From IMG/VR virus record IMGVR_UViG_3300045996_000744, positions 1-23,453 of that record: a stretch of DNA of 23,453 nucleotides; one strand, written 5' to 3'. The stretch's first letter is position 1. Each line of letters opens with the position of its first letter. The translations under genes were made by a program, and so were the position numbers. Positions 11,709 through 18,278 of the stretch are shown piece by piece. The notes beneath the pieces were generated by a model that was not told the DNA's origin, made no database searches, and worked only from the letters and a program-made list of their open reading frames with translations. Origin of the DNA: a virus.

Positions 11709-13004
11709 TCAGGCCGAGTAGGCGAAGGTCCAGTCGGCGTCCGTGTTGTGCGGGAAGTTGTACCCCGAGTCCGGACGCGCCTCGACATCGGTCGTCTCCG
11801 TGATGACCACGTCCGCACCGTCAGCGAGACCGGTCTCGGAGAGCGGGTTGGTGACGTTGAAGTAGCTCACGCCGGCGATCGTCGGGATCGTCATGGTGTT
11901 GGTCTCCGAGTCGAACTCCGGCGACAGCGGCGTCACGGTGGTACCCGAGGTGCGCTTGAGGACGACGGCCGACTTGGCCTTCGTCAGGGCGCCCGAGATC
12001 CGGGTCTCCATGAGGTACTTCTGCTGGTTGTAGTCGATGTCGAAGTCGTCGAACATCGCCAGCTGGCCGCCCTTGTCCGCACCGATGGTGTAGTCGGACA
12101 TGTTGACGAGGACCGCGATCAGGTCCGGAACGTCCTCCATGACCTCGACGACCACGATGTTCGCCACGCGGATGGCCGAGGCGAGCTCGCCCTCCGTCAT
12201 GTACAGGCGGCGACCGATCTTGTCCTTGACCAGGAGCATGTCCGTGAGGATGTCGTCCGTGGTGAACAGCGTCGGCGTGCCGGTGCCCTTGTAGTGCTTG
12301 CGGGCGCGCAGGAAGTACTCCACGTAGTCGTCGGGGACGACGTTGGCCGGCAGGTTCACCGGGTGGGCGTACATCTCGTGGTCCCAGGCGATCGGGCGGA
12401 GGTGGTCCTCGTCGATCTTGTCCTCGTCGTCGGGCTCGCGGCCGTCACCGATGAGGATCGCGCGCGCGATTTCCTCCTCGAGCATGAAGCGCATCTCCCA
12501 CTTCAGCCACACCACCACGTCGAGCTCGGTGATGTCGATGATGTCGTCGCGGTCGAGCTTCTGCTTCTTGTAGACCGTGGTGGGGGTGGTCACGCGCTTC
12601 AGGAGCTTGATGACCTCCTCCTTCTTCAGGGCACCCTTGACGTAACCCTTGGCACGCGCCTCCTCGGCGGTGAGGTCGGCGTGGATGCTCTTGACCCGCG
12701 AGAACGGGGAGTGCTTGGCGCCGTCGAGCACCTTCGCGACCCACTCCGTGCGGCGCGCGATGAGGTCGGGCGTCGAGGTCACGGACTTGGCGTCCGGGAA
12801 CAGGAGCTCGATGTCGTCGATGCCGTAGCCGAGGGACTCGGCGTGGGCGAGGAACGCCTCCTTGTAGGAGCCGGTCTTCTGGGCGTCGGCCTGGATGGCC
12901 TTGAGCGTGTCGTGCGACAGGGTCGCCGGGAGCTCCTCACCCGTGGACGAGTGGATCAGCGTGGTCGAACCAGACTTGTTCTGGTCGAAGACGTTTCGGG
13001 ACAT
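11709..13004 (-). CDS. Major capsid protein (probable internally started product)
   Basis: Within the protease-capsid frame an ATG at 13002-13004 begins MSRNVFDQNKSG and gives a 431-residue capsid protein of ordinary HK97-fold length. AGGAAGG lies ten bases upstream. From this point on, third positions become strongly G or C, as in the major tail gene, while the protease part is more mixed. This fits separate and heavy translation of the capsid. The alternative is that the whole 707-residue chain is made and cut just before or after this methionine. The sequence alone cannot tell these apart. Confidence 0.7.
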   Translation of the reverse strand: MSRNVFDQNKSGSTTLIHSSTGEELPATLSHDTLKAIQADAQKTGSYKEAFLAHAESLGYGIDDIELLFPDAKSVTSTPDLIARRTEWVAKVLDGAKHSPFSRVKSIHADLTAEEARAKGYVKGALKKEEVIKLLKRVTTPTTVYKKQKLDRDDIIDITELDVVVWLKWEMRFMLEEEIARAILIGDGREPDDEDKIDEDHLRPIAWDHEMYAHPVNLPANVVPDDYVEYFLRARKHYKGTGTPTLFTTDDILTDMLLVKDKIGRRLYMTEGELASAIRVANIVVVEVMEDVPDLIAVLVNMSDYTIGADKGGQLAMFDDFDIDYNQQKYLMETRISGALTKAKSAVVLKRTSGTTVTPLSPEFDSETNTMTIPTIAGVSYFNVTNPLSETGLADGADVVITETTDVEARPDSGYNFPHNTDADWTFAYSA

Positions 13005-13832
13005 GGTGTTGTTGCCTTCCTGGTGAGTGAGGTCGCCCTCGCCTGTGATGCCTGAGTGAGATGCAGAGCTGCTGGCCTCGGCCGCTTCGAGAGCTGCGCC
13101 GATCATGTAGTGGACGACGTTCTTCTGCGTCTCGGTGAACGAGTCGTAGACGTCCTGGACGGTCGCGTCCGCGTGGACAATGACCTCGGCGCCAGCATCC
13201 GCCGAAACTTCGAGCGCAGCGCCGATCATCGAGTGAACGACCGCCTTCTGCTCCTCGTTGAGGGTCTCATAGATCTCCGTAGCGGTCTGACCTTCGTCAT
13301 CGCCGCCTTCGGATGCCTTGTCGCCCTCGACGACCTTCTCGCCCTCGGCCTCAGGCGCTCCCTCTTCGGAGTGCATGAGCTCGAGACCGGTGTAGATGAC
13401 CGCCTCGTCTGCCAGAACCTCGAAATCGCCGTCCGAGTGAGCGATCTGCCAGTTGACGATCTTCGCGCCCGGGTTTGCCCCGGAAAGGACCAGGCTGAGC
13501 TCACGGACGGTACCGTGGAACACCTGCTTGGCCTTCTCGACCAGCTCGTTGGCGAAGATTGAGAGGGAGGTGATGTCGCGGTTGCCGACGGCCTCCTTCG
13601 CGTGCTGAGCTGCGTCGGTCTTGTTGAAGAACCCGTCAGCCCAGAGACCCTCCGGCTTCGCCGTGAGAATCGCGTGGCCGAGAACGTTCTGAACCTCGCC
13701 GTGCCGGTGATGCCAGACGAGCGGAACCTCGACTCCGTCCATGTGGGCGAACGCGTCGGGCATGATGGTTCGACCGTCGGAGCACTTGAGATTCGCCTTG
13801 GTTGCCCAACCACTGAAGTCAGGTTCCGTCAT
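11709..13832 (-). CDS. Capsid maturation protease fused in frame to major capsid protein
   Basis: One uninterrupted frame of 707 codons. Residues 1-150 resemble S78 prohead proteases, with a likely catalytic histidine in VPLVWHHRHG (41 or 42) and serine in RELSLVLSGANPG (S113). An acidic spacer (150-185) follows, then two helical repeats (EIYETLNEEQKAVVHSMIGAALE at 187-208 in two parts, and a close copy at 228-251), which could act as scaffold. From M277 the sequence is an HK97-fold capsid protein (FSRVKSIHADLTAEEARAKGY, VVWLKWEMRFMLEEEIARAILIGDGR). AAGGAG precedes the ATG at 13832; the start is 14 bases inside the portal gene. Either a polyprotein is cut by the protease or the capsid is also made from the internal start at 13004. 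Confidence 0.9.
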   Translation of the reverse strand: MTEPDFSGWATKANLKCSDGRTIMPDAFAHMDGVEVPLVWHHRHGEVQNVLGHAILTAKPEGLWADGFFNKTDAAQHAKEAVGNRDITSLSIFANELVEKAKQVFHGTVRELSLVLSGANPGAKIVNWQIAHSDGDFEVLADEAVIYTGLELMHSEEGAPEAEGEKVVEGDKASEGGDDEGQTATEIYETLNEEQKAVVHSMIGAALEVSADAGAEVIVHADATVQDVYDSFTETQKNVVHYMIGAALEAAEASSSASHSGITGEGDLTHQEGNNTMSRNVFDQNKSGSTTLIHSSTGEELPATLSHDTLKAIQADAQKTGSYKEAFLAHAESLGYGIDDIELLFPDAKSVTSTPDLIARRTEWVAKVLDGAKHSPFSRVKSIHADLTAEEARAKGYVKGALKKEEVIKLLKRVTTPTTVYKKQKLDRDDIIDITELDVVVWLKWEMRFMLEEEIARAILIGDGREPDDEDKIDEDHLRPIAWDHEMYAHPVNLPANVVPDDYVEYFLRARKHYKGTGTPTLFTTDDILTDMLLVKDKIGRRLYMTEGELASAIRVANIVVVEVMEDVPDLIAVLVNMSDYTIGADKGGQLAMFDDFDIDYNQQKYLMETRISGALTKAKSAVVLKRTSGTTVTPLSPEFDSETNTMTIPTIAGVSYFNVTNPLSETGLADGADVVITETTDVEARPDSGYNFPHNTDADWTFAYSA
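13005..13021 (-). promoter_or_regulatory. Internal ribosome binding site for capsid
   Basis: AGGAAGG (minus strand, 13015-13021) precedes the in-frame ATG at 13004 by ten bases, inside the longer protease-capsid frame. The spacing is slightly long but usable. It is the only good site between the acidic spacer and the capsid domain and falls exactly at the change in codon use. Confidence 0.6.
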
Positions 13833-15063
13833 GGCTATCTCCTTCCTGTATTGGTGGTGCTGGTGAAGTTGCCGGCTCCGACGGAGCTGGCATGTTGCTA
13901 TTACGCAACTCATCGGCCTTGGGATCGGTCGATGGCATGAAGCCCAAGAAGGGCCTGAGCTCGTTTGGTGAAACGATCTCGTTTCGAGAAAGCTTGTCGA
14001 TGACATCGGCGAGCTCCGAAAGAGGCACGAGCTTGAAAGGGTCGCGGTAGTACTCGAGTGAGTGTCCCTGTGTCCGAGCCGTCTTGGTCAAGAAGGTGCG
14101 CTTCATGGCTTCGCAAACGGCGTCGAGCAAAGGCTCGATTGTTCGGTTGAGATAGTTCAGCATGGCTTTTTCGTCAGCCGTGCCGTTCATGATCTCGGGA
14201 GTGAGCCCCAGCTGGCCGTAGAGCATCTGAATAAGGTATTCGATCTGCCCCATCAGGTTGTTCTCGGCCGGTCGGTTCAGCTGCGTGATTTTCTCGGTAC
14301 CGTCCGTGTAGGCGATACCGTACTTGCTGTCCTTGAGCTGGAATTCGATGTCTTCTCGGCGATTTTCTGCCTGCTTACGTCGCGCGTCGGTCTTGATGAC
14401 GTACGGAAGCTGAATAATGAGGTCCAGCTTGCCGGATCCGGTCTGCTCGTCGATGGCGTCGAGTAGGTTCAGCTTGCGAATAAGACGTTGAAGCGTCGAG
14501 TTCGCCTCGTTCATCACTGAGTAGAACGGATTCTCGACAATGGCAACCAGCTTCTTGTCTAGCGTGATGTTCTCACGCTTGCCGGTCTTGTCGTTGTAGA
14601 GATTAATTGTCACCTGGCGCGGCATCCACTTGGTAATAACGCCGACACGCATCGTTTCGATGTCGTAACTGCCAGAGTCGTTGGGGTTCATCGACGTATC
14701 GACAGGAACGATGGCGAGAGTGCCCGACTCGAACATCGTCATCGCAATATCCTGACGGAATGCGCGGGCACCCTGATCGATGTTTGCCTCGAGCAACAGA
14801 CAATTGTTCAGTCCGCTAACGGCATGCTCCTTGAACCGTCCAGTCTCTGGGTCGAGCTTGACGTGTCGGATCGCGATTGAGGCGAAGTCGACGGCCAAAC
14901 GCACGTATATGGCAGACACGATGGAGCGTTCGTTGGACAGGTTGAGTCGAAGACGACTCGGCGAGGATGAGCCGTACGTTACGGCCTGTCCAAAACCGAG
15001 GCTGTCTTCAGCTCGTCCGTTGAACGCGTTCCACGCGTGCATGAGCTTGTTCCCGATTCCCAT
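13819..15063 (-). CDS. Portal protein (HK97-like)
   Basis: A 414-residue protein of the phage portal family, forming the dodecameric DNA gate at one head vertex and the docking site for the terminase. Landmarks are the N-terminal SIVSAIYVRLAVDFASI helix, TLAIVPVD, ITKWMPRQVTINLYND, a central LIRKLNLLDAIDEQ helix, the KYGIAYTDGTEKITQLNRP region, and GQLGLTPEIMNGTADEKAMLNYLNRTIEPLLDA near the clip and crown. The C-terminus is proline-rich and probably disordered. AAAGGAGG stands just before the ATG. Length and place, before the protease-capsid gene, are normal, although two small tagged genes separate it from the terminase. Confidence 0.92.
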   Translation of the reverse strand: MGIGNKLMHAWNAFNGRAEDSLGFGQAVTYGSSSPSRLRLNLSNERSIVSAIYVRLAVDFASIAIRHVKLDPETGRFKEHAVSGLNNCLLLEANIDQGARAFRQDIAMTMFESGTLAIVPVDTSMNPNDSGSYDIETMRVGVITKWMPRQVTINLYNDKTGKRENITLDKKLVAIVENPFYSVMNEANSTLQRLIRKLNLLDAIDEQTGSGKLDLIIQLPYVIKTDARRKQAENRREDIEFQLKDSKYGIAYTDGTEKITQLNRPAENNLMGQIEYLIQMLYGQLGLTPEIMNGTADEKAMLNYLNRTIEPLLDAVCEAMKRTFLTKTARTQGHSLEYYRDPFKLVPLSELADVIDKLSRNEIVSPNELRPFLGFMPSTDPKADELRNSNMPAPSEPATSPAPPIQEGDSHDGT

Positions 15064-15098: not shown

Positions 15099-15485
15099 TT
15101 AGGACTTCTTTCGATACTTGTCGCGACCGCCGGCAACGATGTCGGCAATGCTGGTCAACCCATGTCGCTTCAAGACGTCCATTGCGTTTTCGCGTCCATT
15201 GTTGACGCGGTCCATGTGGGCTCGTTCGCGCTCTGCTCGAAGTGCTGCAGCCCCTTTAAGGCCCTTGCCCTTCACGAGATCGACGTTCGACGTAGTTAGC
15301 GCAACCTTTGCCTTGTCGCGGAGAGATGCGTTACCCGAAGCAACCCGTTCCTGCCTTGACGCTATCTTGTCGCGCTTTTCGAGGTATCGCTTACGAACAC
15401 CCCACTTCATTCCCTTGACGCCATAGTGCTCGAGGTATTCGCCCACGAATGCTTCGGTCGTCATCACCTGCTCAGCTACACTCAT
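15099..15485 (-). CDS. KGMKWG-tagged small protein C
   Basis: A 128-residue basic protein of unknown function, the second of two tagged genes between the terminase and the portal. Residues 1-32 form a tag ending in HYGVKGMKWGVRK (20-32), 27 of 32 residues identical to the tag of the protein just upstream. After the tag comes a lysine/arginine-rich helical stretch (RYLEKRDKIASRQERVA) and further charged helices up to the C-terminal GGRDKYRKKS. There is no membrane segment. AGGAGG precedes the ATG by about four bases. HYGVKGMKWGVR motifs are known from many phage genomes near head genes, but their role is not established. A capsid-associated or injected DNA-binding protein is a guess. Confidence 0.8.
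   Translation of the reverse strand: MSVAEQVMTTEAFVGEYLEHYGVKGMKWGVRKRYLEKRDKIASRQERVASGNASLRDKAKVALTTSNVDLVKGKGLKGAAALRAERERAHMDRVNNGRENAMDVLKRHGLTSIADIVAGGRDKYRKKS
15394..15419 (-). repeat. 26-base repeat coding the KGMKWGVR core, copy 1
   Basis: The plus-strand string beginning CGAACACCCCACTTCATTCC is identical over 26 bases at three loci (15394, 15955 and 18187), including all wobble positions. It codes the VKGMKWGVR part of the tag in three different genes. Confidence 0.9.
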
Positions 15486-15505
15486 TAGTCCTCCTGACGG
15501 TTTAG

Positions 15506-15520
15506 GTGACTCTTAGTCAC
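15506..15520. other. Short inverted repeat between tagged genes
   Basis: GTGACT, a three-base loop and AGTCAC form a perfect six-base stem in the 63-base gap between the two tagged genes, which is the widest gap in this part of the operon. On the transcribed strand it is not followed by a T-run, so it is not a convincing terminator. It might be an mRNA hairpin or an operator half, or chance. Confidence 0.3.
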
Positions 15521-15548
15521 GGTTTTGTGTGTAAATCCGCGAGTAGAA

Positions 15549-16046
15549 TCACCCTCGCAGTCGATCGCGTTCATAGCTGGGCGTAAATTCGTTGCTTCGA
15601 GGGTTGTACCCCGGAGCGGTTTTGAGCATGAACTCGGTCTGCTCTTTGTGAGCCCTAGCGAAGTCGGCGTCCATTTCGGCAACAATCTTCTTAAACGCGG
15701 CCTGCTCAGCCATTCGCTTAACCGCGGCTTCTCCGTCAGCGGTCCGCTTCTTTACCACAGCGGGGTCGATGGTGCTACGAGGAGACGACTTAAGGGCGCG
15801 ACCCGCGTTGACGATTTGATCGACGGGAAGCTTTCCTTGCTTACCAAGAACGACCATTGCGGTAATCGCACCGACGGCAACAACTCCACCAACAATCGCT
15901 TTCTTTTGATTTGGCGTAAGCTTTCGGCGCGGCGATCCGTCGTCACGTTGCTTTCGAACACCCCACTTCATTCCCTTGACACCGTAGTGCTCGAGGTATT
16001 CTTCCACGAACTCGTCGGTCGTCATCACCTGCTCTGTCGTGCTCAT
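15549..16046 (-). CDS. KGMKWG-tagged protein B with one membrane segment
   Basis: A 165-residue protein of unknown function. It begins with the same 32-residue tag (HYGVKGMKWGVRK at 20-32), followed by a basic patch (RRKLTPNQKK), then one likely transmembrane helix at about 49-66 (AIVGGVVAVGAITAMVVLG). The rest (70-165) is charged and helical, with ERDRLRG at the end. The ATG overlaps the terminase stop as ATGA, and AAGGAGG precedes it, so it is coupled to terminase translation. It is the clearest single-pass membrane protein in the window. It could be a structural, ejection or membrane-acting protein; a holin role is possible but the tag argues for something shared with its siblings. Confidence 0.8.
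   Translation of the reverse strand: MSTTEQVMTTDEFVEEYLEHYGVKGMKWGVRKQRDDGSPRRKLTPNQKKAIVGGVVAVGAITAMVVLGKQGKLPVDQIVNAGRALKSSPRSTIDPAVVKKRTADGEAAVKRMAEQAAFKKIVAEMDADFARAHKEQTEFMLKTAPGYNPRSNEFTPSYERDRLRG
15955..15980 (-). repeat. 26-base repeat coding the KGMKWGVR core, copy 2
   Basis: Identical to the copies at 15394 and 18187. Together with the copy at 18187 the identity extends to about 35 bases (TTT on the left, ACCGTA on the right, plus strand). Confidence 0.9.
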
Positions 16047-17812
16047 TCGAATGCCTCCTTGTTGGCCTTGTATGCGACGTAGGCATCCATCAGAGCTGCC
16101 ACGTTGTCGATCTTCTCGTCTTGCCGTTTCTTCAGCAACTTACGGTTGCCATTCGTGTCCTCCATAGTGATGGCATTACCCATCGTGAAGGACATGAGTA
16201 CCTGGTCGAATATGAGCATGCGCTCACCCGCCAGGATCTTCAGCTCGCCGAGAGGAACCGACTCGGTCCGAGCGCCCTGAATGACCTTGACGGTGCCGTA
16301 CTCCCCATTCTCGAGATTCCAGCGCGTCACAAATTCAGCAGCGTTGTAGGGGTCATAGCCGAAAGCACGAACATCGTCGAATTGCTCGCGAACCATGTAT
16401 TCGTTGAGATCGTCGTAGACCTCCATCATGTCCAGAACGGTGCCCTCGAGAACTCGAAGGCTTCCTTCCTTGATGAAGCTGTCGTACTTGACTCGCAGAG
16501 CCCCTGGGAGTTTGCTCAATGTCAGAGCGGTGATGTAGCTAAGTGTCTTGACGCCGAAAGCGCCGCGACGGTTGAGATTTGGGAACAGGAAGGTGAACGC
16601 ACAGAAGTCGTCACCCTGCGAGAGGTCCGCGCCGAGTGCACAGGGCATTCCCATGAACGCGCGAGGGCGTCGAGGGTGCGGAAGAGTCTCGCTGTATTCG
16701 AAGAACCAGGTGTAGCCCTCCATGGGGATACCGAAACGCTTTGCGAGAATGTCATTACGAGAAGCAGGCGCCTTTTCGGCCCGCTCGACGTCTAGGTGAT
16801 ACGTCTCATACGTGACGGTTCGTCCCAGGTTGGGTTGGGCCTTCAACCACAGCTCGGGGTGTGCAACTTCAGCTAGATCGTCCAGCTTGTAGTGAAAAAT
16901 CGAGATGTGAGGAGCTTTGTACTCCCCTCGGAGGATCTCTGCCAGTTCCATTTTGATGGTGTCGCCAGATCCGTTTCGAACAGTTCCTTCTGAGCTGACA
17001 GCGACGATCAGATAGTCCTCGCCGTCCTTTGAAGCTCCCTGTTCGATGGCTCCGATGACGTCTTCTCTGAGATCTCCCGACAACCATTCGTCAACCGTCG
17101 AGATCTTGGGCCTTAGACCCTGCAGCTTGTTGATTGACATCGGTCGAACTTCGAGCATCGACCCAGTGAGGAAGTTTTCGACGCCCTTCTTCGTTGCTGC
17201 CAGCTTGACACGGTTAGCTCGAGAGCCGGTCGTGTTCTGAAGAGAGCCTTCTGTCAGGAATGCGAACAGAGGACCCTTGCTTCGGGTGATGGCGGTTCGA
17301 ATCGGGGACATCACCTCCTCGGCCTGCTTCATTGTCGGGGCCGTGGTGATCTGGTGAGTGGTCGAGGTGTCGATGTTGAGGAAGTAAGCCTGGAGCAGAG
17401 ACTCGTAGAGGGACTTGGCGGCTCCTCGGGCCACGATGAGATACTGCTTCTTCGTGAGCCGGACTTTGAAGACCTTGTCGACGAATCGACCTCCCAGGGC
17501 GGACGCGTTGCCGTAGTCCTCCCAGACGGGACGAGTCTCGAAGACCCACCAACCGAAGATCTGCTCGGCCCAGAGCTTGAACGTGGGAAGGAGCTTCAGA
17601 TCGCGCCCATCTGTGAGTGTCATCTCGTTCTCGCAGAACAAGATGAAGCCCTCGAGCGGATCTGGGTCATAGAAGACCGTCTTGTCAGCGATGAGCCTGT
17701 CAATGCGGTTCATCTCCATGGAGATCTCTCGGTTTACCGGGATCTCTCCTCGAATCACCGCATCACGGAACTGCCCGTAGTAGAACGGCGTAGCCGTGTT
17801 TGATAGGCTCAT
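16043..17812 (-). CDS. terL: Terminase large subunit
   Basis: A 589-residue packaging motor and nuclease. The ATPase part shows a deviant Walker A (ARGAAKSLYE, about 129-138), and a Walker B ending in STVDEW (D241, E242) after the EVRPMSINKLQGLRP segment. The nuclease part shows the acidic residues expected for the RNase H-like fold: D396 in GADLSQGDDFCAFTF, D487 in FGYDPYNA and D569 in KIDNVAALMDAY. The frame is open upstream to 17905, but the ATG at 17812 has AAAGGAGG in place and begins MSLSNTATP, so it is preferred. The gene follows tagged protein A and ends in an ATGA overlap with tagged protein B. Length and motifs are complete. Confidence 0.95.
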   Translation of the reverse strand: MSLSNTATPFYYGQFRDAVIRGEIPVNREISMEMNRIDRLIADKTVFYDPDPLEGFILFCENEMTLTDGRDLKLLPTFKLWAEQIFGWWVFETRPVWEDYGNASALGGRFVDKVFKVRLTKKQYLIVARGAAKSLYESLLQAYFLNIDTSTTHQITTAPTMKQAEEVMSPIRTAITRSKGPLFAFLTEGSLQNTTGSRANRVKLAATKKGVENFLTGSMLEVRPMSINKLQGLRPKISTVDEWLSGDLREDVIGAIEQGASKDGEDYLIVAVSSEGTVRNGSGDTIKMELAEILRGEYKAPHISIFHYKLDDLAEVAHPELWLKAQPNLGRTVTYETYHLDVERAEKAPASRNDILAKRFGIPMEGYTWFFEYSETLPHPRRPRAFMGMPCALGADLSQGDDFCAFTFLFPNLNRRGAFGVKTLSYITALTLSKLPGALRVKYDSFIKEGSLRVLEGTVLDMMEVYDDLNEYMVREQFDDVRAFGYDPYNAAEFVTRWNLENGEYGTVKVIQGARTESVPLGELKILAGERMLIFDQVLMSFTMGNAITMEDTNGNRKLLKKRQDEKIDNVAALMDAYVAYKANKEAFE

Positions 17813-17825
17813 CGCTGACCTCCTT

Positions 17826-18278
17826 TCACTTCTTCTTGTCCATGGCCTTTGCGACCTGCTTCGTGACGGCTTGCGATGCGATGCTCGAGACTTGATTCCG
17901 GCCAAGATTGAGTAGAAGGCCTCCGACGAACGCCAGCGTCTTCTCTGATGCTGACTTAGGACGAAGCTGGCTGTACTGCTGCTCCATCTGAAGCCGGTTG
18001 ATCAGAGCCTTCAACTCCTTGTCGGAAAGAGCGTCCGTCGTGCTCTTCTGAGCCTTCTGCTTTCGAACTGCAGCGCGAACGGCGTCTGGATGAGCAGCTT
18101 GACCCGTACCTCCAGTTGCCTTGACGCGAGCTCCGGGCGCGTGAGTGGTCCGGACCTTGGTTCGTTCGACTCCACCGCGATCTTTTCGAACACCCCACTT
18201 CATTCCCTTGACACCGTAATGGGCAAGGAAATCGCCAGCGAATTCCTGGCCGGAGGCAAGATGTGTAGCTGTTGACAT
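17826..18278 (-). CDS. KGMKWG-tagged small protein A
   Basis: A 150-residue basic protein of unknown function just upstream of the terminase. Residues 20-32 are HYGVKGMKWGVRK; the residues before them (MSTATHLASGQEFAGDFLA) differ from those of the two siblings more than those differ from each other. The body has a disordered basic region, then ALSDKELKALINRLQMEQQYSQL (two helices, a pattern seen in similar phage proteins), a hydrophobic AFVGGLLLNLG stretch and a lysine-rich end. The frame is open far upstream (to 18617), but GGAAGGAGG lies directly before this ATG and the tag aligns from here. It sits 13 bases after the minor tail gene. Confidence 0.82.
   Translation of the reverse strand: MSTATHLASGQEFAGDFLAHYGVKGMKWGVRKDRGGVERTKVRTTHAPGARVKATGGTGQAAHPDAVRAAVRKQKAQKSTTDALSDKELKALINRLQMEQQYSQLRPKSASEKTLAFVGGLLLNLGRNQVSSIASQAVTKQVAKAMDKKK
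18187..18212 (-). repeat. 26-base repeat coding the KGMKWGVR core, copy 3
   Basis: Third copy of the identical 26-base string, about 2.2 kb from copy 2 and on the other side of the terminase gene. Confidence 0.9.

What the first reader, a model, noticed from the sequence alone, without database searches (positions are those of the whole stretch)
15099..18278. Three different proteins around the terminase share one N-terminal tag
Proteins at 17826-18278, 15549-16046 and 15099-15485 each carry HYGVKGMKWGVRK at exactly residues 20-32, while their bodies are unrelated: one has a hydrophobic stretch near its end, one a transmembrane helix, one only basic helices. Copies B and C match at 27 of 32 tag residues. 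This looks like a transferable address label: it could direct cargo into the prohead, to the portal, or into the host with the DNA. The motif is known in phage genomes, but I know of no established function for it, and three tagged cargoes in one operon is notable.
Basis: partly seen in the sequence, partly recalled or inferred. Interest (0 to 1): 0.68.

Follow-up and report, generated by a model that had tools for sequence, protein, structure and literature searches.

The report
Phage tag likely loads injected proteins
A short N-terminal tag shared by hundreds of otherwise unrelated phage proteins, three of them in this window, looks like a shipping label that puts cargo proteins into the immature virus head, where the head-trimming protease cuts them, so that they can be injected into bacteria with the viral DNA.

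Summary
Three proteins flanking the terminase carry HYGVKGMKWGVRK at residues 20-32, with unrelated bodies. The tag is Pfam DUF7211, of unknown function; I found no paper on it. It is widespread: 1,209 distinct tagged proteins fell into 324 body clusters, up to nine per phage. Cargoes include ADP-ribosyltransferase, glutamine-deamidase, GNAT, Ntox50 and 2H-phosphoesterase domains.

The tag occurs almost only in phages whose major capsid protein is fused to an assemblin-fold prohead protease. The counts match by host genus. In 391 Clostridia-class genomes, exactly the same three hold both.

A motif, [LIVM]-x-H-[SAG]-[DE], is about 30-fold enriched in the protease-capsid linker and capsid N-arm. 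It is also 17-24-fold enriched at junctions before internal tags; inside cargo bodies [LIVM]-x-H is depleted. The tag itself contains the invariant [LI]-x-H, about 12 residues from the N-terminus. T4 capsid-targeting sequences show the same geometry with [LI]-x-E.

Best reading: a capsid-targeting and protease-processing signal for injected internal head proteins. Prohead entry and processing are well supported by sequence. Cleavage after the tag His, the receptor, and injection are inferred.

The parts
17826..18278 (-). Tagged protein A (150 aa), directly upstream of TerL; body of the common 'SDxELxxxxNRLxxExQY + hydrophobic tail' family
   Evidence: DUF7211 6.6e-14; phrog_7021 1e-21; orthologues
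18183..18221 (-). Tag core of A, HYGVKGMKWGVRK, residues 20-32; preceded by L18-A19
15549..16046 (-). Tagged protein B (165 aa), hydrophobic helix after the tag; body is a singleton in this data set
15951..15989 (-). Tag core of B
15099..15485 (-). Tagged protein C (128 aa), basic helices
   Evidence: phrog_17496 3.6e-23
15390..15428 (-). Tag core of C
16043..17812 (-). Terminase large subunit
   Evidence: TerL_nuclease 3.8e-31; phrog_9 8e-99
13819..15063 (-). Portal protein
   Evidence: Phage_portal 6.8e-15; phrog_12 3e-40
15037..15045 (-). Portal N-terminal LxH site (MGIGNKLMHAWNAF, residues 7-9)
11709..13832 (-). Fused protease - scaffold linker - major capsid protein (707 aa), phrog_3270
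   Evidence: 2.3e-238
13443..13832 (-). Assemblin-fold protease domain (aa 1-130)
   Evidence: pLDDT about 95; herpesvirus proteases, Z up to 10.1
13437..13445 (-). Candidate protease site 1, IAH|SDGD (aa 130-132), His invariant in 44 relatives
13371..13379 (-). Candidate protease site 2, LMH|SEEG (aa 152-154)
13197..13283 (-). Linker repeat 1, helical hairpin (aa 184-212)
13065..13160 (-). Linker repeat 2, helical hairpin (aa 225-256)
13002..13004 (-). Conserved internal ATG (MSRNVF, aa 277), possible second start that makes capsid protein alone; the SD-like sequence is weak in this window

Best explanation
DUF7211 is the capsid-targeting and processing signal of a large siphophage lineage defined by a fused prohead protease-scaffold-capsid protein. 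Step 1: cargo proteins made near the terminase carry the N-terminal tag x(about 10)-[DE]-x-[LI]-x-H-[YHF]-G-[VI]-x-G-[MQ]-x-W-G-x-R. Step 2: the tag docks on the inside of the growing prohead, most likely on the protease or linker part of the fused capsid protein, and so takes the cargo into the shell. Step 3: the assemblin-like protease cuts after [LIVM]-x-H in the linker, the capsid N-arm, the portal N-terminus and the junctions between tagged modules, and probably in the tag itself, freeing cargo from scaffold. Step 4: mature cargo stays with the DNA and is injected, where effector domains (ADP-ribosyltransferase, deamidase, acetyltransferase and others) act on the host. Shown here by computation: the tag, its cargo diversity, its link to this capsid type, the shared motif and its placement. 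Inferred: the His P1 specificity, the docking partner, the cut inside the tag, and injection.
For: (1) Co-occurrence. Phage records with the tag versus records with the fused capsid protein: Arthrobacter 95/95, Gordonia 55/55, Streptomyces 54/54, Curtobacterium 7/7, Microbacterium 4/4. Of 391 Clostridia-class genomes, exactly the same three hold DUF7211 and full-length phrog_3270; standalone S78 hits come without the tag. Of 41 bacterial or archaeal genomes with the tag DNA, 38 hold the fusion. (2) Place: 138 of 229 between TerL and portal, 84 within 4 kb upstream of TerL. (3) Cargo: ADPrib_exo_Tox, Gln_amidase, Ntox50, GNAT, 2H phosphoesterase, DUF6883, M90. Gordonia phage Mossy gp17 is tag-GNAT-tag-glutamine deamidase. 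(4) Motif: [LIVM]xH[SAG][DE] 342 observed against 9.8 shuffled in linkers and 113 against 3.7 in N-arms; absent or low in capsid core, TerL and other ORFs. Before internal tags 18 against 0.74; before tags that follow an N-terminal domain 7 against 0.40; [LIVM]xH depleted in bodies, 363 against 536. (5) The tag has [LI]xH in about 97% of 1,236 copies, with P2 and acidic P4-P5 preferences like the linker sites. (6) Portals have [LIMV]xH in the first 25 aa in 184 of 292, TerL in 6 of 255. Other N-terminal modules of these phages share it: YYDP type 29/34, SGRYPWGSG type 33/37, against 6.6% background. The SGRYPWGSG module sits on a DFDGD RNA polymerase, a motif shared with virion RNA polymerases of other phages. 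(7) Lactococcus phage 1706 orf7, with two degenerate tags, is recorded as a structural protein. (8) MuF is absent in 40 of 40 records.
Against: No virion proteomics could be read: the phage 1706 label is a GenBank annotation. In the tag, P1' is Y/H/F, not the S/A/G of the linker sites, so the tag site may be a docking pseudo-substrate and not be cut. GVKGMKWGVR is too conserved to be explained by cleavage alone; its partner is unknown. AlphaFold2 left the tag disordered beside the linker repeats in the one natural fusion, L039. Tag number hardly follows repeat number (rho 0.22). Most loci were fetched by the tag pattern, and the phages are related, so counts are not independent events. A few fused-capsid loci (L227; L242 degenerate) lack a clear tag.
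Confidence: 0.66

Rival explanations
1. The tagged proteins are head-assembly factors (scaffold-like or packaging chaperones) that dock on the fused capsid protein through the tag but are lost before the virion is complete; they are not injected.
For: Tight link with the fused capsid protein; the commonest tagged family (protein A) is small, basic and immediately upstream of TerL; a natural fusion of linker repeats with a tagged protein exists in L039.
Against: Many bodies are enzymes or toxin domains with no role in assembly; more than 300 body clusters is too diverse for assembly factors; phage 1706 orf7 is recorded as structural.
Confidence: 0.17
2. The tag anchors cargo to the tail or portal channel, or is an ejection signal, without entry into the prohead.
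For: Genes lie next to the portal; in phage D_HF5_2C (L185) the tagged genes lie just before the tape measure gene.
Against: Prohead-protease-like sites at tagged-module junctions and their depletion in bodies imply exposure to the protease; association is with capsid type, and only 5 of 229 tagged ORFs lie downstream of the capsid gene.
Confidence: 0.08
3. The tag is a nucleic-acid-binding or membrane-active peptide (basic, with Trp) that acts in the host cell, and co-occurrence merely reflects one phage lineage.
For: Composition K-G-M-K-W-G-V-R-[RK]; several bodies have hydrophobic helices.
Against: Does not explain the invariant LxH shared with capsid linker, portal and other modules, nor one tag in front of each module in multi-module proteins.
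Confidence: 0.06
4. The repeated tag is a DNA-level element (recombination or homing site) kept for shuffling genes.
For: Four-fold sites of tag pairs in one locus agree more than codon usage predicts (0.434 against 0.328); in the window they agree at 15 of 21.
Against: Most synonymous identity is lost while the amino acids stay (0.79 identity), so selection is on the protein; frame and N-terminal position are kept.
Confidence: 0.03

Closest known systems
Phage T4 capsid targeting sequences (IPI, IPII, IPIII, Alt) with prohead protease gp21
   Same: Short N-terminal propeptide, 10-19 residues in T4; here His at a median of residue 12. A tripeptide site, [LI]-x-E in T4 and [LIVM]-x-H here. Unrelated cargoes, including an ADP-ribosyltransferase, beside the same scaffold (PMC9026906). 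The T4 IpII precursor cut MKTYQEFIAE|A is recorded in GenBank X04567; compare GDFLAH|Y in the window.
   Different: P1 is His, not Glu; a conserved GVKGMKWGVR follows the site; protease and capsid protein are one polypeptide; HK97-like siphophages, not T4-like; many more cargoes, some as multi-tag polyproteins.
Phage P1 DarB capsid targeting (first 30 residues)
   Same: N-terminal signal sufficient to package a reporter; cargo defends the incoming genome (PMC9024508).
   Different: P1 Dar proteins show no shared sequence at their N-termini; here one sequence is shared by hundreds of proteins.
MuF-linked effectors of temperate phages
   Same: Head-module proteins that carry toxin or effector domains (from general knowledge of MuF polymorphic toxins).
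   Different: No MuF domain in 40 of 40 tag phages; the targeting element is a 25-residue tag.
Salmonella phage SPN3US gp245 system
   Same: Prohead protease with a three-residue motif (A-x-E, Ser at P1') repeated in propeptides of internal ejection proteins (PMC10052503).
   Different: Motif and phage lineage differ.

Membership tests
Pfam DUF7211 (PF23847) | Match to the 25-residue profile above its curated cut-off | tested here: met
   three copies, 44-54 bits against a cut-off of 27
Capsid-targeting sequence (T4 type, by function) | Short N-terminal sequence shared by unrelated proteins | tested here: met
   93% of first tags within 35 aa; 324 body clusters
Capsid-targeting sequence (T4 type, by function) | Contains a prohead-protease site | tested here: inconclusive
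   [LI]xH shared with linker, N-arm and junction motifs, but P1' differs and there are no cleavage data
Capsid-targeting sequence (T4 type, by function) | Necessary and sufficient for packaging into the prohead | not testable with these tools
   needs a reporter-packaging experiment
T4 CTS, by descent | Homologous sequence with gp21-type [LI]xE cleavage | tested here: not met
   P1 is His in essentially all of 1,236 tags; resemblance is functional only
Fused protease-MCP phages (phrog_3270) | One ORF with N-terminal prohead protease, linker and HK97-like capsid protein | tested here: met
   (2.3e-238)
Herpesvirus assemblin / prohead protease fold | Assemblin-like beta-barrel | tested here: met
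   VZV protease Z 10.1, 122 residues, 4.3 A; herpesvirus proteases fill the top 34 rows, from Z 10.1 down to 5.6, the next best row 4.0
Herpesvirus assemblin / prohead protease fold | Catalytic Ser and His residues | tested here: inconclusive
   H42 and S91 invariant, H106 in at least 90%; not superposed on a catalytic triad
MuF effectors | Phage_Mu_F domain (PF04233) | tested here: not met
   0 of 40 records

The most novel reading that the evidence does not exclude
One lineage of siphophages, spread over hosts in several bacterial phyla, uses a common two-part N-terminal code for loading its proheads. The shared half is [LI]-x-H, read by a His-specific assemblin-like protease fused to the capsid protein. 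The second half is interchangeable: GVKGMKWGVR on effectors, SGRYPWGSG on a virion RNA polymerase, YYDPxKAxEYY on a protein encoded between portal and capsid genes. Hundreds of unknown phage proteins would then be injected cargo that can be listed by sequence.
Probability: 0.5. Interest if true: 0.88.

Novelty: new variant of a known kind. Interest (0 to 1): 0.79.

Why it matters
A family of unknown function would gain a role, and a large share of unannotated proteins beside phage terminases would become predicted injected effectors, many with toxin or anti-defence-like folds. It gives a sequence rule for finding cargo, a new P1 specificity for an assemblin-like protease, and a candidate short tag for packaging foreign proteins into siphophage heads. 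All of it can be tested on cultured actinophages and lactococcal phages.

Tried and rejected
Literature: no paper in the held library contains the motif or DUF7211; none on the other module motifs. Solved structures: no sequence match to the tag or the fused capsid protein. DNA-repeat explanation rejected by the synonymous-site test. The idea that the linker repeats are the tag receptor gave only a weak count correlation (rho 0.22) and no docking in the L039 model, although L039 fuses two such repeats to a tagged protein. My first His-motif script matched only 6 linkers because of a faulty pattern and was redone on 188. A mixed alignment placed linker fragments wrongly and was not folded. L043 first seemed to be a tagged RNA polymerase; it holds only a short DFDGD remnant. 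The Bacteroidia sample was uninformative: only the centre genome had either feature. I did not search the literature for a His P1 specificity of prohead proteases beyond these calls.
Full report
OBSERVATION. The three tagged ORFs are real and correctly placed. Each has His20 of HYGVKGMKWGVRK, and each contains exactly one [LIVM]-x-H, the one inside the tag. All three hit Pfam DUF7211. The window is a 23,453-base virus record with the order tagged A, TerL, tagged B, tagged C, portal, fused protease-capsid protein. Three tagged genes is not many: Arthrobacter phage Paella has nine, Rhodococcus phage ReqiPepy6 eight.

HOW WIDE. About 239 of 50,697 phage records hold the tag, mostly phages of Actinobacteria, also Lactococcus, Faecalibacterium, Bifidobacterium and gut contigs. 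Scans of viral and bacterial contigs gave 1,414 tags in 542 loci and 1,209 distinct tagged proteins, in 324 body clusters, 269 of them singletons. In 136 cluster representatives only H, G and W of the tag are invariant across the set. Consensus: [DE]-x-[LI]-x-H-[YHF]-G-[VI]-x-G-[MQ]-x-W-G-[VI]-R. Some 59 proteins carry two to four tags.

ONE CAPSID TYPE. Records with the tag and records with the fused protease-capsid protein agree genus by genus. In a sample of 391 Clostridia-class genomes, one of them the centre chosen because it has the tag, DUF7211 is in three and full-length phrog_3270 is in the same three; ten others have only partial hits and no tag. Of 41 tag-bearing bacterial or archaeal genomes, 38 have the fusion. 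Lactococcus phages have 13 capsid-protein hits against 8 tag hits, which fits degenerate tags such as LQHRGVIGMRWG and LLHKGVKGMKWG in phage 1706 orf7, a protein recorded as structural.

PLACE. In loci with TerL, portal and capsid genes, 138 of 229 distinct tagged ORFs lie between TerL and portal, 84 upstream of TerL within 4 kb, 2 between portal and capsid gene, 5 downstream.

CARGO. Pfam finds ADP-ribosyltransferase exoenzyme, glutamine deamidase, Ntox50, DUF6883, GNAT, M90 peptidase, 2H phosphoesterase, peptidoglycan-binding and EF-hand domains in single or few members; most bodies match nothing. NCBIfam adds a XopAD-like protein. Mossy gp17 is tag-GNAT-tag-glutamine deamidase.

THE FUSED CAPSID PROTEIN. 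AlphaFold2 gives a confident beta-barrel for aa 1-130 and two helical hairpins in the linker. The barrel matches herpesvirus maturation proteases. The hairpin repeat is almost confined to this linker; one tagged protein, L039, has two such repeats in front of its tag. An internal ATG just before the NVF motif has a Shine-Dalgarno-like sequence in 67% of 200 genes against 33% after synonymous shuffling, so capsid protein may also be made alone; the window's copy is weak.

THE SHARED MOTIF. Of 867 His residues in 188 linkers, 86% have L, I, V or M two residues before, against 17% in the capsid core. [LIVM]xH[SAG][DE] occurs 342 times in linkers (9.8 expected from shuffles) and 113 times in the 60-residue N-arm (3.7 expected), 6 in the capsid core (4.2), 2 in TerL (15.6), 17 in other ORFs (20.3). 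Scaffold segments studded with a short motif, and one near the capsid N-terminus, are what T4 gp21 and SPN3US gp245 substrates look like. I infer that this is the cleavage motif of the fused protease.

THE SAME MOTIF IN TAGGED PROTEINS. The tag has the invariant [LI]xH at a median of residue 12. In multi-module proteins the full motif is 24-fold enriched in the 60 residues before an internal tag (18 against 0.74), 17-fold before a tag that follows an N-terminal domain (7 against 0.40), absent from the rest of inter-tag segments (0 against 0.84), and [LIVM]xH is depleted in the bodies after the last tag (363 against 536; every one of 300 shuffles was at or above the observed count). Sites at junctions and avoidance inside bodies are what one expects if these proteins meet the protease, that is, inside the prohead.

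OTHER MODULES. Portals have [LIMV]xH in the first 25 residues in 184 of 292, TerL in 6 of 255. A protein between portal and capsid gene begins LxHYASxYYDPxKAxEYY; 29 of 34 have the LxH. A DFDGD-type RNA polymerase found in the same phage genera (95/55/54 again) begins LxHYGxxRxSGRYPWGSG (33 of 37 for the module; RNAP identity). DFDGD marks the virion RNA polymerase of phage P23-45, and crAss-like phage phi14:2 gp66 is a single-subunit virion enzyme of the same broad class (PMC10770324); crassviruses carry RNA polymerase proteins as capsid cargo (PMC10172136). So [LI]xH is common to several second halves, which argues that it is a separate functional element.

SELECTION. Tags on unrelated bodies in one locus are more alike (0.788) than tags on related bodies in different loci (0.762) or random pairs (0.707); none of 200 shuffles of tags among loci exceeded 0.709, against the overall within-locus value of 0.793. 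Synonymous sites are mostly scrambled. This fits tags adapting to a receptor within each phage, plus some recent copying, though common descent within a phage could also contribute.

MECHANISM AND LIMITS. Best model: dock, package, cut, inject. The docking partner is not identified; protease domain and linker are the candidates because both belong to the fusion. Whether the bond after the tag His is cut is open, since P1' is aromatic. Injection is inferred from cargo type and from T4 and crassvirus precedent. Counts come from related phages and mostly tag-selected loci, so fold enrichments, not P-values, should be read.

Noticed in passing
window 13002-13031 and relatives: Conserved internal ATG with a Shine-Dalgarno-like sequence inside the protease-capsid fusion gene; capsid protein may be made by internal initiation as well (67% against 33% in shuffles).
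   Followed up: partly
L039:1359-2540 (minus): Tagged protein upstream of TerL whose N-terminus carries two scaffold-linker repeats, then tag-body-tag-body: a natural fusion of scaffold repeat and tag.
   Followed up: partly
L282:3991-6714, L440:1522-4218 and phage genome ends: A DFDGD-type RNA polymerase of about 900 aa, often annotated as helix-turn-helix protein, is found in the same phage genera as the fused capsid protein and has its own N-terminal LxHYGxxRxSGRYPWGSG module.
   Followed up: partly
L186:17559-18338, L302:4034-4870 and others: Protein between portal and capsid gene with a second N-terminal motif, LxHYASxYYDPxKAxEYYxRTxxLKGR, in 48 of 245 loci; no Pfam match.
   Followed up: partly
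L043:3776-7282 (minus): A 1,172-aa reading frame with four tags, a GNAT-like first module, xHS[DS] sites before the later tags and a short remnant of the RNA polymerase active-site motif.
   Followed up: partly
L295:1055-1732, L079:2813-3307, L266, L269, L331: A rare fourth N-terminal motif, HKYIxKxxxxGKWxYxY, in small proteins, with [LI]xH just upstream in 5 of 5.
   Followed up: no
L193:6440-7993, L053: 2H phosphoesterase fused in front of the tag and the common body in Gordonia phages; this fold includes known cyclic-nucleotide anti-defence enzymes (from general knowledge), so it may be injected counter-defence.
   Followed up: no
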